This document shows, piece after piece, positions 20,392 through 61,451 of a stretch of 64,000 bases of DNA. The stretch lies in the NCBI GenBank assembly GCA_949517355.1, contig CATDIL010000001.1, positions 62,001 through 126,000 on the forward strand, in the 5' to 3' direction. A model generated the notes under the pieces. It saw only the letters and a program-made list of their open reading frames with translations. It had not been told where the DNA came from and made no database searches. The stretch's first letter is position 1. Every line of letters starts with the position of its first letter. The stretch is from an uncultured Mycoplasmatota bacterium (GTDB taxonomy: Bacteria; Bacillota_I; Bacilli_A; Mycoplasmatales; Mycoplasmoidaceae). Both the position numbers and the translations under genes were made by a program.

Positions 20392-22089
20392 TTATCCAAC
20401 TACTCAACCTGATGGTAATCCTTTAGTTTTTAAATGTGCAAGTAACTGTGCACTAGTAATAGAAGAATTACCAGTAACTTTAACAGTTCCTGTCGCTCCT
20501 ACTTTATTAAAAGGAACATCAGTAATATTAGGTAAACTTGTTAAATTGTTTCAAACAATTTGCTTTATAGGTACCGCTCCTACTGTAGTAATAAAATTTG
20601 TAGTTATTGTTTGTAATGTTCCTGGAAGAACAATAGTTTGTATTTGCGATTTATGTAAAAAATTTTCAAATACAGAACCATCTGTTTGTTCAATTCCACA
20701 AAACCTTGTAAAAGCAGTTTCGCTTAAATCTAAAGTTTGAACAGCTGTATTTTCAAAATTAAATGTGTAATTATAATTTTTTGAAAGATTTCTACATCCA
20801 GAAAAATTAATATTTTTAAGTGATGTGAAATTTTTAAAACAATAACCACTTAAATATGAAAGTTGGCTACATCCAGAAAAATCTATATTTTCTATATATG
20901 TTGGACATTTTGAACTTCCAATAGTTGAAAAATCAAACGCTTGTTGAGCAATACCAGTTACAGTATTTGGAATCTTTATTGTATCATATCCTTTATTTGC
21001 ATAAAAATCTTTATTTTCTAAAAATTCATTTTTAAATCCCTTTAATTCGTTATTTTCAATTCTAAGAAGTTCAGTTGGTAAGGCATTATCTACAGTAAAT
21101 GTAAAATGTTTAGTTGTACTAGTACCATATTTTTTACTAGTTGCCTTAACATCAAATGAATAGTTACCAATTGTAGTCAATTGATTTCAACTAAATTTTA
21201 AGGTATCAGTATTAAGAGAAACCATTCCATCAGATGTATCATTAATAATTTCTCATTCAACTGATTGATCAGGGGTATTTGAATCAATTATTGAAGCAGA
21301 TAAAGCTTTGGTAGTTGTACCAGCAATATTGTAATATGTAGGAAGATCTGTTGAATCATTTCATGTAATTTCAATAGTTGGTACTGATACATTTAAAGTA
21401 AATGTATAACTATCACTTTTAGAAGAATCTTGATTAGAAGTTGCTTTTAACGTTAATTCATGACTACCTGCCTGATTAGAATCCATTGCTTGTCAAGAAA
21501 TTTGATGAGTGTCTTCATTAAAAGTAATTTTATTACTAACAGTATCGCCAGTCAGTGATCAAGTAACATCTTGGCTAGTTTGATCAGCAGGTTTTACTAT
21601 AGATTCAAAAGTAAATGGATTGCCATCTTGACCTGTAATATAACCAACAGTATTGTTGTATGTAGAATATGTAGTTTGACTCGGATGAACAATCTCAACA
21701 CTTTCTACTAAAGTGTATGTAAAGTTGAATTTTAATTCGATTATGTTTGAACTTTTAGTTTTATCTTTTGAATGAAAAGCTTGAACTTGCAATAAAACTT
21801 CTTTAGGTTGATTAACAGGTTTAACAGTTAATGAACCATCAGGATTCACATCGATATCTTGTGTGTCAGAGATTTTTTTAAAAATAACACTAGAACTTTT
21901 TAAACCAGAAACCTTTCAAGAAGAATCAATTGTTTTTTGTTGATTAACTAGTAAGTTAATTGTTGTTTCACTAGTTCATTCTATTGAAAAACTTTGCGAA
22001 AATGAACACGATGAAGTTAAAGGAATAGTTGTAGTTATTAAACAAGTTGCGCTTAATATTGCAAATATTTTTAATGCTTTTTTTAACAT
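20392..22089 (-). CDS. Surface lipoprotein with BspA-like leucine-rich repeats
   Basis: A 565-residue lipoprotein. The signal peptide ends at lipobox LTSSC with Cys28. Residues about 40-330 hold three or four successive Ig/cadherin-like segments with repeated ITWN..., DKTKSSN/DSSKSDS and SYTFTLNVSVP patterns. Residues 350-540 are treponemal BspA-type LRRs, with IKIPNTVTGIAQQAF, NIDFSGCSQLSYLSGYCF, NINFSGCRNLSKN and TLDLSETAF. It ends TAA next to the rpe stop, facing it. Such proteins are host- or surface-binding adhesins in other bacteria; the role here is inferred. Confidence 0.85.
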
Positions 22090-42142: not shown

Positions 42143-42167
42143 TACTAGGGAAACCTAGTATTTTTTA
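42143..42167 (+). terminator. Terminator after tRNA-Arg
   Basis: The stem TACTAGG/CCTAGTA with a GAAA tetraloop is followed by six Ts. valS ends immediately beyond on the opposite strand, so its transcript may use the same hairpin. Confidence 0.88.
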
Positions 42168-44753
42168 TTTAAGCTTAGCAATTTCTTCTTTAATTTGTTC
42201 AAATTGAGTTTTATAAGACTCATATTTTTTTTGTTCAATTTGAATCTTTTCTTTAGGTGCTTTTGCTAAAAAGTTTTTGTTAGAAAGAATTTTTTTTGAT
42301 CTATCAAGTTCTAATTCTAATGATTCTAATTTACGTTTTAAATCAGTTAATAGTTTCTCTTTATTTACAAAAACATTTTTGAATTCAACTGCAATATCAC
42401 CAACAGTAATTAAATCTCAATCAAGATTTTTTCTTACCTTTGATATTGAATTAATCTTAATATTAAATTTATTTAAGAATTCAGAAATTAAATTTAAGTT
42501 TAATCTTTTGGTAGTTAAAATATTTAATTCAATAATGTTTGATTTAGAAATGGAGTGTTTAATTCTTAATTCTTTAACTAAATTAAAGACTTGAATAAAA
42601 ATATTAATTTCATTCTTTTTTAATGTAGATTTAAGCTTAGTTGGTCAACTCTCACAAAGAATAGATTCTTTGTCTTTATAAATATTTTGATAAATATTCT
42701 CAGTTAAGAATGGAGCGTGTGGGTGTAAAATTATCAAAATATTTTTGAAAATGTAATTAATTGTTCAAATGGTTTCATCTTTGTATTTATCATCATTGAA
42801 CAATGGTTTTGAGAATTCAATATATTGATTGCAGAATATATCTCAAATAAATTCAACTAAATATTTGTTAGCTACAACAAAATTGTATTTATCCATGTTC
42901 TTAGAAATCTTTTCTAAATAATTGTTAAATTGTGAAAGAATTCAAGAATTAATTAAATTAAATTTAACAGTTTTTTCAATTTTGTTAGTTTTGTTAAAAC
43001 TAATAAAGTTTTTTGCATTTCAAATTTTGTTGAAGAAATTATCATAATAATTAATTTTTTCTTCATCATATCTTAAATCTTCACCAAGACTTACAGTAGA
43101 TGTTAAGAATATCCTTAACGCGTCTGAACCATATTTTTCTATTACATCCATTGGATCAATACCATTGTTTAGTGATTTAGACATTTTTCTGTTTTGTGAA
43201 TCTCTAATTAAACCATGTAATAAAACCTTGTTAATAGGAATAGAGTTAGTTAGATATGAACATTGAAACAACATTCTGGCAACTCAGAAAAATAAAATAT
43301 CATATCCAGTTACCAAAATAGAAATAGGATAGAACTTTTTAAGTTCTATATTATTCTCAAATGTACAAGCAATTGGTCATAATGCAGAAGAAAATCATGT
43401 GTCTAATACACCCTTTTCTTGAGCATAATTTTCTATATCTTTTGGTTGTTGTTCACCAACATAAATCTTATTAGAATTCTTTTTATACCAAACAGGCAAT
43501 TGGTGTCCCCAAACCAATTGACGACTAATACATCAATCATTAATGTTTGTCAACCATCGATTTAATGTTGCCTTATATCTTGGTGGAATAAAAGAATATT
43601 TAATTTTAGATTTCTTTTGAATGGCAGCCAATTGTTTAACAATTGGTTTCATCTTAACAAATCATTGTTTAGATAATAATTGTTCAACAACTTCTCCTGT
43701 TCTTTCAGAATATCCTACTTCATTATCATATTCTTCTGCTTTAATTAGCATGCCTCGATCAGCCATTTCTTTAACAATACTTTCACGAGCTTCTAATCTA
43801 TCTAATGATTTAAATGATTTTGTAACAGATTGCGCATATGCATTTAATTTACCATCATTATCAATTACTGAATGATAATCCTTAATATTGTGTTTCTTAG
43901 CTAGTTCATAATCATTTAAATCATGTGCCGGTGTGCATTTCATTGCACCTGTACCAAATTTAATATCAATATATGAATCAGTTAATACTTTAAGTTTTTG
44001 ATTATTAATAGGATTTATTACTTCTTTCCCAATAAAAGATAAATATCTTTTGTCTTTTGGATTAACAAAAACATGAGTATCAACAAACATCGTTTCTGGA
44101 CGTGTGGTTGCAATTGGTAAATATTTTGATTGATCTGTTGCTAAACAATACTTGAAATAATATAACTTAGAATGAGTTGGTTTATAAATTGTTTCTATAT
44201 CAGAAATAGCAGTTTGTAGTTTAACATCTCAATTAACTAATTTGTAATCTTGATAAATTAAACCATTTTTATATAAGTTAACAAATGTCTTTCTAACAAG
44301 TTTTTTAATAAAACCATCTAAAGTAAAAATTTCATTTTGATAAGAAAGAGCAAAACCCATCGTTGCTCATTGATTTCTAATGTATTGAGCTTGTTCTTTT
44401 GATCATTTAAAAATTTGGTTTACAAAATCTTGTTCACTTAAATTTTCTTTTTTAATTCCTTTAGAATTAAGTAACTTTTCATATTTAGTTTGAGTAGCAA
44501 TACCTGCATGATCAGTTCCAGGAATTCAAATAGTATCAAATCCTTTAAGTTTTTTATATCTAATAATAGTATCCTGTAAATAACCGTCTCATGCGTGCCC
44601 TAAATGTAAGTGTCCAGTAACGTTTGGTGGTGGTAAAATAATTGAAAAGGGTTTTTTTGAAGAATTATGGTCTTCAAAAAAATTATTTTTCTTTCAAAAA
44701 TCGTAAATACCTTCAATTACTTTTTTATGATCAAACTTATTAGGATTTTGCAT
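42165..44753 (-). CDS. valS: Valyl-tRNA synthetase
   Basis: An 862-residue class I synthetase. The HIGH box is [13 protein letters not shown] and the KMSKS box is [14 protein letters not shown]. The CP1 editing domain looks intact, with [18 protein letters not shown] and [18 protein letters not shown]. The C-terminal coiled coil (about 795-862) is [18 protein letters not shown] and following. More than a dozen Trp residues are UGA. The next gene upstream on the same strand is the C39 ABC protein, 24 bp away. Confidence 0.96.
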
Positions 44754-44777: not shown

Positions 44778-46604
44778 TTAATCATTTATATAGAAGACGA
44801 AATTTTCTTTTGACACTTTTTCTTTAATTAATTTATCAATATATTCTTTTTGTTCTTTAGTTAAATATCTAAAACAATCGTTAAAACAAATAATCTTTGA
44901 TGATTGAATATAAGCAAACATAAAATTAATAATCTGTTGTTCACGAATTGTAAAAGATGTTTTCATTAAATTTATATTAAAATATGATAATAAATCTTTA
45001 AAGACCATTATGTTTGTCTTAAGTAAACATTCTGCTGGAATCTTACTATCAGGATTAATCTTAATAAAATTATCTTTAAAATAAAATGAATTTTGTTTAT
45101 TAGGTTTATTTATTCCTAAAAAAGTATCTAAACTTATTTTAAAATGTGATTTAATATTTTCATTTCTTTTAATACAATATGTTGTATTCGCATTAAAAAA
45201 ATAAAGTGCATTTACATCTTCAATTCTGTTAATTGATGAATCTTTTATTCCATTGGCAATATTAATAATGTTTCAATAAATTGCAGCCATTTTTTTATAC
45301 TCTTTTTGTTTAGACGGAAATAGGCAAACATCTTGAACAGATGTAGAAAACATTCCTAATAAACTAATAATAAAAGTTAATAGACCAATATTAAATTTAT
45401 CATTAATTAAATAATAGGCACCAAAACCTATTGTTAATATGTAAGTGACATTTGTAAAAAATGATTCAAAGTTAAATGTAAAATTTTCAAAGGAAGTTTT
45501 CTTTGTATAGATTTTTTCAAACTCTGTAATATTACATCTTAATTTATTTAAATTAAAATTCAATAATTCTTGGTTTTCCTCTTTACTTATCGAATTAATA
45601 ATTTCAGCTGAAATATTGTTTGATATATTACTATTCTTGATTGATACATTAATATTGTGTTCTTTAAAATTGTATGTTACTACACCAAACACAGATTTTA
45701 TTAACAAAACAACAATGCAGAACACTATAAACATTGGTTTAATAAACGAAAGAATTATTATTGTAATAACACACATTATTAAATCGGTAATTAATGTAGG
45801 TATTTCATAAGTTAAATACCCGCATATTGAAACTATTGATGAATCAACTATATAAATAGAACTTAACTCAATCTTGTTAATAAAATGACCTGTTTTATGT
45901 TTTAATCTGTTCAATAATTGATAATTTAAATATCTAAAATTTTGTTTAAATCTAATAAGTGAATATTGTTTAAGAAAATAGCTTAACAACAAATTTAATC
46001 CTCCAATTAATAAGAAAATAAAACATAGACTAACCAAATTTGATGTTGATTTTCCATAAACAGACATATTTAATGTTCAATTAAATACATTTGCAAATAA
46101 TGTTGATAATCCAATTATTAAAATGTGAATACCTAATGTAACAGCAAAATATTTTAGATCAATATTTTGCAAATCTATTTTTTGGCTTTTATATTTAATA
46201 TTTACTTTTGATTTAGATACATCAAAAATAATGCCTGCAAACTTTTCTTTAAATTGGTTATATTGTAGTTCGAATATTCCAGAATCAGAATCATAGATTT
46301 TTAAACAATCTTTCTTTTTGTAAACAATAATGTAGTGCATTCCCTGATTCTTATTAATCAGCATTCCATAATATTTATTGTTTTTAAGTTCTACAAACTC
46401 ACTTCATTCACATTCATAGCTTTCAATAAATAACCCAAATTTTTGTCCTAAATTTTCAAAATCAAAAATACTCAAACCATTTTCACTAATATTTGCAGCA
46501 TTAAGAACTTCAAATTTATTTGAGTTGTTATAAAAGTGTTTTACAAAACTATTTATTACACAAACACCACATTCATTTGGAGAATTTTGTCTTGTTATTT
46601 CCAT
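44778..46604 (-). CDS. C39-peptidase-containing ABC exporter with decayed nucleotide-binding domain
   Basis: A 608-residue protein. Residues 1-135 are a C39 bacteriocin-processing peptidase with Gln6, the nucleophile Cys12 in SPNECGVC, His90 in GMHYIIVY and Asp105 in KIYDSDSG. Residues about 150-410 hold six hydrophobic segments of an ABC exporter membrane domain. Residues 420-608 stand where the ATPase should be, but no Walker A (GxxGxGKS) is visible. FTIREQQIINFMFAYIQSSK may be the remnant of LSGGQxQR, and IICFNDCFRYL that of Walker B (LDEPTSxLD). It resembles the mycoplasma Mbov_0121-type peptidase-ABC family, as I recall it. The peptide cargo is unknown. Confidence 0.82.
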
Positions 46605-46694: not shown

Positions 46695-47339
46695 TTAGTT
46701 AAATTCAATTGGTAAACAATCTTTTAATTCGAATGTTCCTGATTTTATTCTTTTTAGTGCGCTAATGTATCCATGATTATTAAGTGCCAACCCTAAGTCA
46801 TGTGCAAAACTACGAATGTAAAAACCTTTGCTAACCTTTAGCTCAATAGTTAAAGTGTTGTTTATATATTTAATAATTTTGTATGAAAACAATTTAACAT
46901 CTCTTGGTTTAATTTCAACTTGTTTATTGTTTCTAGCATAATCATATAACTTCTTACCATTTACTTTAATAGCAGAATATATTGGCGGAAATTGTTTATA
47001 GTCATTTAAGAATTTATTCTTAATCACCTCTTCAATTTGTTCAACACGAATCTTGGATGCATCAATTTCTTTTATTATTTGTCCTTCTGCATCATATGTT
47101 GTTGTTTCAATTCCAAATATAATATCAGCAACATATGTTTTATCATCTTGAATTAATGTAGATAATTCTTTAGTTCCTTTATTAACACCAAGGACCAATA
47201 CGCCAGTAGCTAACGGATCTAATGTTCCTGCATGTCCAACTTTTTTAAATTTGTATTTGTGTTTAATAAATTGAACAACATCATTACTTGTTCAATTAAT
47301 AGGTTTATCAACACAAAATACTTTTTGTTTAATTTCCAT
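46695..47339 (-). CDS. truB: tRNA pseudouridine-55 synthase
   Basis: A 214-residue enzyme. The N-terminal KPINWTSNDVVQFIKHK and GHAGTLDPLATGVLVLG hold the catalytic Asp. FPPIYSAIKVNGKKLYDYAR and VSKGFYIRSFAHDLG are family motifs. It lacks the C-terminal PUA-like domain, which is usual for reduced genomes. One Trp is UGA. It diverges from the ttcA-like gene with only 33 bp between the starts. Confidence 0.93.
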
Positions 47340-60287: not shown

Positions 60288-61451
60288 TTAATTTAGATAA
60301 TTTAAAATAATTGTTTTATCTTTATAATCCCAAATGTTGTATGGTGTAATTATTGGATTGCTTGGATCATAACTGTATTTATTTAAATCTACTCCAGCAC
60401 TTTTATATGCAGCCCAAATGAACTCAGAGCAATATCAAGAAGGTTGATATGATGTTGACATAGTCAACATAATTGGGCATGAGTAGCCTGATTTTTTATC
60501 TAGTTCATGTCTTGCAAAACTCAACACTTTGTTTGTTTGCTTTTGACTCATATTATTTATTCTAAAAATATGTCCCTTATTTTCGGCACGTGACATTCGT
60601 GTATCATCTACTAAACCATAAGAAATACCATATTGATTACATTCAATCGTTCTGTAATACTCTCTATTATTTGGATCTTTATATTTACCTTCAATTATTG
60701 CTAAATGTCCAGTATCTTGTCCCTTGTCTTCAAAACCAATTTCACTAAAAAACATATCACCAGGTTGAACGTTTTCTCAATCATATAATTTGTATGTGGT
60801 ATTTTCAGACACACAAATTTGATCAATAGGAGTTTTAAGTTTGCTACCGTCCAAATGACTATGGTCAATTCCTGTATAGTATTTATCATCCCAAATTTTA
60901 TAAATTAATTTTCAGGCATCTTCTTTGCTGTCGTCACAGTATGGGACTAAAAAATAATTAAAAATATTTTTTAACGTTCATGCTCTTTTAATACTGTCTT
61001 TAAAATTTAACACGTTATTGCAAATATTTTTTATATAAGAAAGAACATAATCACGTTGTTTTTCTGTAAGCAATTCTTTAATTCTTGTTTCATTCAGTAT
61101 CTTTTTTGCATTTTCAACCACAAAATCTTTATTTAGAATTAATTGTTCTTGCAAAATATCAACAGGATCTTTATTACACAAAACATCTTCACATTTTGAT
61201 GCAATTTCATCTAATACAAGATCAAGTATTGTTTTTGCTGCACTAAAATAATCTTCACCTGTTTCAGATTCTACCAGCTCGTTCACAATATCTACTTGTG
61301 AATCAATTTCCGTTTTTGTATGTTGAATTGTTTGTTTTATGAAAAAACTATAAGGAAAAACTTCTTTGTGTGAACACGAACAAAGACACAGCGTTTGAAA
61401 AATCAAACTACTCTGCGAGACCAAATTTAAAAGAAAAAGTCTTTTTTTCAC
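60288..61451 (-). CDS. Secreted lipoprotein with YiiX/NlpC-P60-like (permuted papain-fold) domain
   Basis: A 387-residue protein starting with GTG at 61451; no ATG fits the signal peptide. The signal MKKRLFLLNLVSQSS... ends at lipobox LCSC (Cys26). Residues 30-180 are helical and polar. Residues about 225-380 resemble YiiX/YebB-type NlpC/P60 enzymes: PGDMFFSE, His249 in TGHLAIIEGKY, and Cys341 in WYCSEFIWAAYKSAGV, followed by the typical ITPYNIWDY. With no peptidoglycan in mycoplasmas, the substrate would be a host or foreign cell wall, lipid or protein. Confidence 0.75.

What the first reader, a model, noticed from the sequence alone, without database searches (positions are those of the whole stretch)
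44778..46604. Peptidase-ABC exporter with intact C39 triad but no recognisable ATPase site
The protein has a full C39 peptidase (Cys12, His90, Asp105, Gln6) and a six-helix exporter domain. The C-terminal ~190 residues keep the size of an ABC ATPase, yet I see no Walker A, and the signature and Walker B positions read FTIREQQ and IICFND. Either the protein works as an ATP-independent processing protease, or it pairs with another ATPase. Why such a machine is kept without its motor, and which leader peptide it cuts, is open.
Basis: partly seen in the sequence, partly recalled or inferred. Interest (0 to 1): 0.75.

Follow-up and report, generated by a model that had tools for sequence, protein, structure and literature searches.

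The report
Peptidase-ABC exporter without its ATPase motor
A group of gut- and rumen-type mycoplasmas keeps a membrane protein that is a peptide-cutting exporter in every part except the engine: the ATP-binding loop has been deleted while the protease, the channel and a small partner protein are preserved, so it probably cuts (and perhaps passively passes) its substrate without burning ATP.

Summary
Window 44778-46604 (minus strand, TGA = Trp) encodes a 608-aa C39 peptidase / type-1 ABC exporter half-transporter. AlphaFold plus PDB searches show that residues 455-608 are a true ABC nucleotide-binding domain, but shortened: the Walker A loop is deleted (about 12 residues), and the signature, catalytic Glu and H-loop His are gone. 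This is neither a frameshift nor a private accident. All 30 sequences of the same clade that I aligned lack the loop, whereas other genera of the same family and other Mycoplasmatales families keep it. A second loss (part of another genus) is favoured but not proved. The C39 Gln/Cys/His are invariant in 57 of 57 homologues, and the Asp in every motorless one. dN/dS is 0.02-0.08 for the peptidase and 0.09-0.10 for the membrane domain; it is relaxed but still under 1 (0.19-0.30) for the pseudo-ATPase. A one-helix accessory protein (MAG1140-type), adjacent to the transporter in relatives, is retained here elsewhere, in the ybeY-era cluster. No partner exporter and no canonical double-glycine peptide was found. 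Best reading: a constitutively protease-competent, motorless variant of the mollicute Mbov_0121-type transporter. Substrate and direction of transport remain unknown.

The parts
44778..46604 (-). Motorless C39 peptidase / ABC exporter half-transporter, 608 aa, code 4 (ATG 46604-46602, stop 44780-44778)
46206..46604 (-). Peptidase C39 domain, residues 1-133; catalytic Q6 (46589-46587), C12 (46571-46569), H90 (46337-46335), D105 (46292-46290)
   Evidence: PF03412 E 1.5e-18; Q, C, H in 57/57 homologues, D in 53/57 and in all motorless ones
45261..46157 (-). Six-helix ABC exporter membrane domain, residues 150-448
   Evidence: PF00664 E 7e-7; helices in model; 454 residues aligned to PCAT1 4ry2_B, Z 24.6
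45849..45902 (-). Intracellular loop between the second and third membrane helices, residues 235-252, with near-invariant K237, F241, K244
   Evidence: 97, 97, 91% of motorless rows; loop position from model
44781..45242 (-). Pseudo nucleotide-binding domain, residues 455-608
   Evidence: separate model pLDDT 89.1, pTM 0.84; all listed top matches are ABC ATPase domains, Z about 10, 141-159 of 161 residues aligned
45135..45161 (-). Approximate site of the P-loop (Walker A) deletion, residues about 482-490
   Evidence: alignment against intact homologues
44934..44954 (-). Signature-equivalent position, FTIREQQ, residues 551-557
44877..44894 (-). Walker-B-equivalent strand, IICFND, residues 571-576
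42165..44753 (-). valS-like gene directly downstream (24 bp); this linkage recurs in about 15 relatives
   Evidence: name by sequence inspection
46695..47339 (-). truB-like gene directly upstream, same strand
   Evidence: name by sequence inspection

Best explanation
The gene encodes a descendant of the mollicute peptidase-containing exporter (Mbov_0121 type) that lost its ATP-binding loop but keeps the protease, the membrane channel and a folded pseudo-ATPase domain. Probably a homodimer, it would stay in the ATP-free, inward-facing state that in PCAT1 is the cleavage-competent one, and so act as an always-on, membrane-anchored leader protease with the pseudo-ATPase as scaffold. It probably still works with the MAG1140-type one-helix protein encoded elsewhere in the genome. 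Shown here: predicted fold, deletion, conserved active site, selection, partner retention. Inferred: homodimer, constitutive inward-facing state, leader cleavage, physical contact with the partner. Unknown: substrate, and whether the product crosses the membrane.
For: P-loop deleted in every clade member aligned while C39 Q, C, H, D are invariant in all motorless forms; no PF00005 in 24/24 against clear hits in 7/7 intact relatives. dN/dS 0.02-0.08 (C39), 0.09-0.10 (membrane), 0.19-0.30 (pseudo-ATPase) for the window against its two nearest relatives. ABC fold kept. Present in 33 of 35 same-genus genomes, many reduced to 0.5-0.7 Mb. Accessory retained in 30 of 36 genus genomes at E < 1e-3, in many of them in the ancestral ybeY-(dgkA)-era cluster, under purifying selection (dN/dS 0.11-0.21). 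Accessory found in 24/24 transporter-positive family genomes tested and weak or absent in 4/4 negative ones. Literature: PCAT1 protease activity is inhibited by ATP binding, and ATP-free PCAT1 is inward-facing with docked peptidase domains (PMC6959990; PMC8794836).
Against: No substrate found, and no biochemistry. PCAT1 is only an analogue (12-14% identity). The title of Nishie et al. 2011, seen in a reference list (paper not held), says a lantibiotic transporter needs its ATP-binding domain together with its peptidase domain. Retention of channel and accessory suggests that something beyond proteolysis is kept.
Confidence: 0.55

Rival explanations
1. Uncoupled exporter: besides cutting, the dimer still passes cargo across the membrane without ATP, by diffusion or a ratchet (extracellular folding or capture by the MAG1140-type partner) or by the membrane potential.
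For: Membrane domain under strong purifying selection; one-helix partner retained after unlinking and co-occurring with the transporter; partner also directly downstream in the motorless g24 and g20 forms.
Against: In PCAT1, release outward needs ATP-driven NBD closure (PMC6959990); nothing in the sequence shows an alternative energy source. The membrane domain may be kept only as anchor and substrate cradle.
Confidence: 0.22
2. It borrows a motor: it pairs with another ABC half-transporter or a free-standing ATPase.
For: Most related genomes also carry further complete exporters; heterodimeric exporters with one degenerate site are well known (PMC7756269).
Against: Own genome shows no other PF00664 protein and its ABC ATPases have best matches to other systems. 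In the degenerate-site cases seen in that review the motifs are substituted, not the whole P-loop deleted. The MAG is 90% complete, so a missed partner is possible: the near relative G026 has further exporters.
Confidence: 0.1
3. A relic on the way to loss: the protein has no function and the C-terminus is decaying.
For: Pseudo-ATPase evolves faster than intact ones (0.19-0.30 against 0.047 in L041/L043); some relatives are shorter (L027, 549 aa); two genus genomes lack it.
Against: Open frame conserved in about 30 deeply diverged relatives (down to about 25-30% identity), invariant active site, dN/dS well below 1 in every domain.
Confidence: 0.06
4. Not a leader protease for export but a transacylase or processing enzyme on a housekeeping protein, as proposed for the syn3A homologue 0401 (lipoyl-peptide import and transamidation).
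For: PMC6609329 proposes this because no double-glycine peptide is known in mycoplasmas; no canonical leader found here either.
Against: That proposal is tentative and was made for a gene annotated as a complete transporter; nothing here links the gene to lipoate.
Confidence: 0.07

Closest known systems
Mbov_0121 family peptidase domain-containing ABC transporter (NCBIfam NF045998), mollicutes
   Same: Best family match; peptidase and membrane domains align over profile positions 2-483 (E 7e-53); intact members in other families of the order have the MAG1140-type gene directly downstream, followed by ybeY
   Different: 180 bits against a cut-off of 500; the ATPase part of the profile (after 483) is not matched; P-loop deleted; gene relocated away from its accessory
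PCAT1 (Clostridium thermocellum) and ComA (Streptococcus)
   Same: Same domain order and fold (Z 24.6 to 4ry2_B); same kind of catalytic residues
   Different: 12-14% identity; PCAT1/ComA have complete ATPase sites and known GG-leader substrates; here neither was found
HlyB-type exporters with a C39-like domain
   Same: Domain order and fold (7sgr/8dck Z about 22.8); one enzyme activity lost in a C39-ABC protein
   Different: The mirror image: HlyB has a dead peptidase and a live ATPase (own knowledge), this has a live-looking peptidase and a dead ATPase
Heterodimeric exporters with a degenerate site (TM287/288, TAP, Pdr5)
   Same: Loss of catalytic ATPase residues in one NBD
   Different: They retain ATP binding and a second live site; here the P-loop is deleted and no partner was found
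MAG1140 family (NCBIfam NF045999), unnamed function
   Same: Partner gene; f7 member E 4e-38, g24-type member L067 2.6e-5
   Different: The own-genome member is below the NCBIfam threshold and is linked by my profile (E 8.6e-9) and by position next to ybeY

Membership tests
Peptidase-containing ABC transporter (PCAT) | Catalytically complete C39 domain at the N-terminus | tested here: met
   PF03412 1.5e-18; Q6, C12, H90, D105 conserved. Activity itself not tested
Peptidase-containing ABC transporter (PCAT) | Type-1 ABC exporter membrane domain | tested here: met
   PF00664 7e-7; model and PDB match
Peptidase-containing ABC transporter (PCAT) | NBD with Walker A, signature, Walker B Glu, H-loop | tested here: not met
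   P-loop deleted, other motifs lost
Peptidase-containing ABC transporter (PCAT) | Double-glycine leader substrate | tested here: inconclusive
   The relaxed leader pattern gave 2 genome hits, neither in a leader-like setting by eye; the strict pattern had a spacing error. Non-canonical leaders not excluded
NCBIfam NF045998 (Mbov_0121 family) | Score over curated cut-off, full-length match | tested here: not met
   179.9 bits against 500; profile 2-483 of 673
ABC nucleotide-binding domain (fold) | ABC ATPase fold of residues 455-608 | tested here: met
   profile hit to ABC ATPase 2ghi 9e-6
HlyB-type (C39-like domain) exporters | Catalytic Cys of C39 lost | tested here: not met
   C12 invariant in 57/57
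Heterodimeric exporter with degenerate site | Partner half-transporter with a live ATPase | tested here: inconclusive
   None found in the own genome, which is 90% complete; relatives have other exporters

The most novel reading that the evidence does not exclude
A lineage of mollicutes turned an ATP-driven processing exporter into an energy-uncoupled two-part machine, C39 protease-channel plus a one-helix outer partner, that cuts and releases its substrate without ATP; the motor may have been discarded more than once.
Probability: 0.25. Interest if true: 0.82.

Novelty: new variant of a known kind. Interest (0 to 1): 0.64.

Why it matters
I found no report of a peptidase-ABC exporter that keeps the protease and drops the ATPase (only open-access text searched). 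It gives a natural test of what the NBD does in these machines: whether cleavage needs ATP at all, and whether the channel can work passively. It also bears on the open question of what mollicute C39 transporters do, including syn3A 0401, for which no leader peptide is known (PMC6609329). The transporter plus MAG1140-type pair, conserved even when unlinked, is a tractable unit for finding the substrate.

Tried and rejected
Local frameshift or sequencing error in the window: rejected, because the same deletion occurs in all relatives of the clade. G036 does carry a real frame break between its membrane domain and an intact Walker A; this is a different genome. Partner ATPase: none identified. 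Double-glycine leader scan: pattern 1 was mis-spaced by one base; the corrected and relaxed pattern gave two hits, read by eye as a ClpB-like Walker-B segment and an unrelated sequence. First idea that the accessory was lost together with the motor: rejected, since it was found at another locus in the genus and next to motorless transporters in g24 and g20. Homology of the accessory to ComB/HlyD barrels: suspected from its layout, but no Pfam match and no PDB sequence match, so not claimed. Two independent motor losses: favoured by the tree (0% of bootstraps with one change) and by both states occurring within genus g20, but one loss is not rejected (AU p = 0.25). Plasmid collection: only an ordinary Mesomycoplasma homologue. 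Paper searches on inactive-ATPase PCATs found none; most subscription papers are not held.

Full report
WHAT WAS CHECKED. The reported frame lies on the minus strand of the window, 44778-46604, and is open only with TGA read as tryptophan (three such codons). The genome is a 636 kb, 9-contig, 90%-complete assembly. The nearest record is an 'uncultured Mycoplasmatales bacterium' whose protein is 96% identical. The 608-residue product has a Peptidase_C39 domain (E 1.5e-18), an ABC exporter membrane domain (E 7e-7) and no ABC_tran match. NCBIfam's best match is the Mbov_0121 family of mollicute peptidase-ABC transporters, but only over profile positions 2-483 of 673 and at 180 bits against a cut-off of 500: the ATPase part is what fails to match.

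IS THE C-TERMINUS AN ABC DOMAIN? Yes. A model of the whole protein (pLDDT 82.7) aligns over residues 140-608 with PCAT1 (4ry2_B, Z 24.6, 454 residues, rmsd 4.0). Residues 448-608 predicted alone (pLDDT 89.1, pTM 0.84) match ABC ATPase domains in all listed top rows of both searches, Z about 10, with 141-159 of 161 residues aligned. The domain is shorter than its targets. Alignment with intact homologues places the missing piece at the strand-loop that carries Walker A: about 12 residues are gone and the neighbouring helix remains. The signature LSxGQ reads FTIREQQ, the Walker B strand IICFND, and the H-loop histidine is absent. None of 24 such C-terminal domains matches PF00005 at E <= 1, whereas all seven motor-intact relatives scanned do.

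IS IT A LOCAL ACCIDENT? No. A homologue is found in 33 of 35 same-genus genomes, and all 30 sequences of this clade in the final alignment, including the window, lack the P-loop. Other genera of the same family (g17, g18, g19, g21, g22, part of g20) and other families of the order keep Walker A, signature, Walker B and H-loop. In G036, a sister genus, Walker A is intact although that assembly has a frame break just before it. Genus g24 and three members of g20 also lack the loop. The best tree needs two losses (g1 with g24; part of g20), and both states occur within one genus, g20; but a single loss is not rejected (AU p 0.25).

IS IT STILL IN USE? C39 Gln, Cys and His are identical in 57 of 57 homologues. 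Asp105 is identical in all motorless ones; the four exceptions are motor-intact. Between the window and its two nearest relatives dN/dS is 0.02-0.08 for C39, 0.09-0.10 for the membrane domain and 0.19-0.30 for the pseudo-ATPase; an intact pair (L041/L043) has 0.047 for the ATPase (Nei-Gojobori). So protease and channel are strongly kept and the pseudo-ATPase is relaxed but not free. In the membrane domain the most conserved residues, K237, F241 and K244, lie in the loop between the second and third helices that in exporters of this type faces the NBD (placement from the model, and general knowledge of the fold).

A PARTNER PROTEIN. In the motor-intact relatives examined the transporter gene is followed directly, often with overlap, by a gene for a protein of about 120 residues with one N-terminal membrane helix, and in outgroup loci next by ybeY. 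NCBIfam calls it the MAG1140 family (f7 member 4e-38). The motorless g24 and g20 transporters keep it adjacent. In the window's genus the transporter has moved, in many genomes next to valS, but the accessory persists: 30 of 36 genomes at E < 1e-3, in the ybeY-(dgkA)-era-recO cluster in many of them, in the own genome at G000:C3:80047-80424 (L144:6048-6425), with dN/dS 0.11-0.21. Within the family all 24 transporter-positive genomes tested have it, and the four without C39 have none at E < 0.003 (G173 has one at 0.0032). The own-genome copy is below the NCBIfam threshold; its identity rests on my profile and on position.

NO BORROWED MOTOR, NO KNOWN SUBSTRATE. The own genome shows one C39 protein and one PF00664 protein, both this one. 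Its ABC ATPases match ECF, sugar, polyamine, phosphate, DrrA-type, SufC and UvrA families best. Relatives usually have additional complete exporters, so a missed partner in the 10% gap cannot be excluded. A relaxed double-glycine leader pattern gave no leader-like hit (one search used a mis-spaced pattern). This agrees with the published remark that mycoplasma C39 transporters lack recognisable double-glycine peptides (PMC6609329).

MECHANISM. In PCAT1 the ATP-free state is inward-facing with the peptidase domains docked, substrates are cut in that state, and ATP binding inhibits proteolysis and drives release (PMC6959990; PMC8794836). A protein that cannot bind ATP at this site should therefore rest in the cleavage-competent state. 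This is an inference by analogy at 12-14% identity. I rate 'always-on membrane protease, perhaps with the accessory' at 0.55 and 'also passes cargo without ATP' at 0.22. The kept channel and accessory argue that more than proteolysis is preserved; nothing here shows transport.

NOVELTY. It is a variant of a known kind: a peptidase-ABC exporter that fails the defining ATPase feature, the mirror image of HlyB-type proteins, which keep the ATPase and lose the peptidase. I found no description of this in the papers searched, which exclude most subscription journals.

Noticed in passing
window 46571-46560 (residues 12-15) and relatives: The catalytic Cys12 sits in a CGxC motif; the second Cys (C15) is present in 35 of 35 motorless homologues but in 6 of 18 motor-intact ones. 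It may be simple descent or a redox or metal feature.
   Followed up: partly
L117, L125, L128, L129 (motor-intact, genera g20 and g22): The third catalytic residue (Asp105 column) reads Cys in four motor-intact transporters, while all motorless ones keep Asp; an alignment shift is not excluded.
   Followed up: no
L066, L069: Possible intermediate: Walker A kept (GKSGIGKS) but signature changed to MSPGV, with relaxed ATPase-domain dN/dS of 0.235.
   Followed up: partly
L033:4260-4320: The G036 transporter has a one-frame break just upstream of an intact Walker A (GPSGSGKST); could be an assembly error near a T-run or a real pseudogene.
   Followed up: partly
L157:3191-6608: In G023 a valS-like gene lies directly before the accessory and ybeY, although the transporter itself is elsewhere; a possible trace of the relocation.
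   Followed up: no
window 60288-61451: Protein with lipoprotein-like start and a possible NlpC/P60-like C-terminal stretch (TGHLAIIEG, SCPIMLT...WYCSEFIWAAYKSAG), by eye from the translation.
   Followed up: no
window 20392-22089: Secreted-looking protein with repeated Ig-like segments and a C-terminal leucine-rich-like part, by eye.
   Followed up: no
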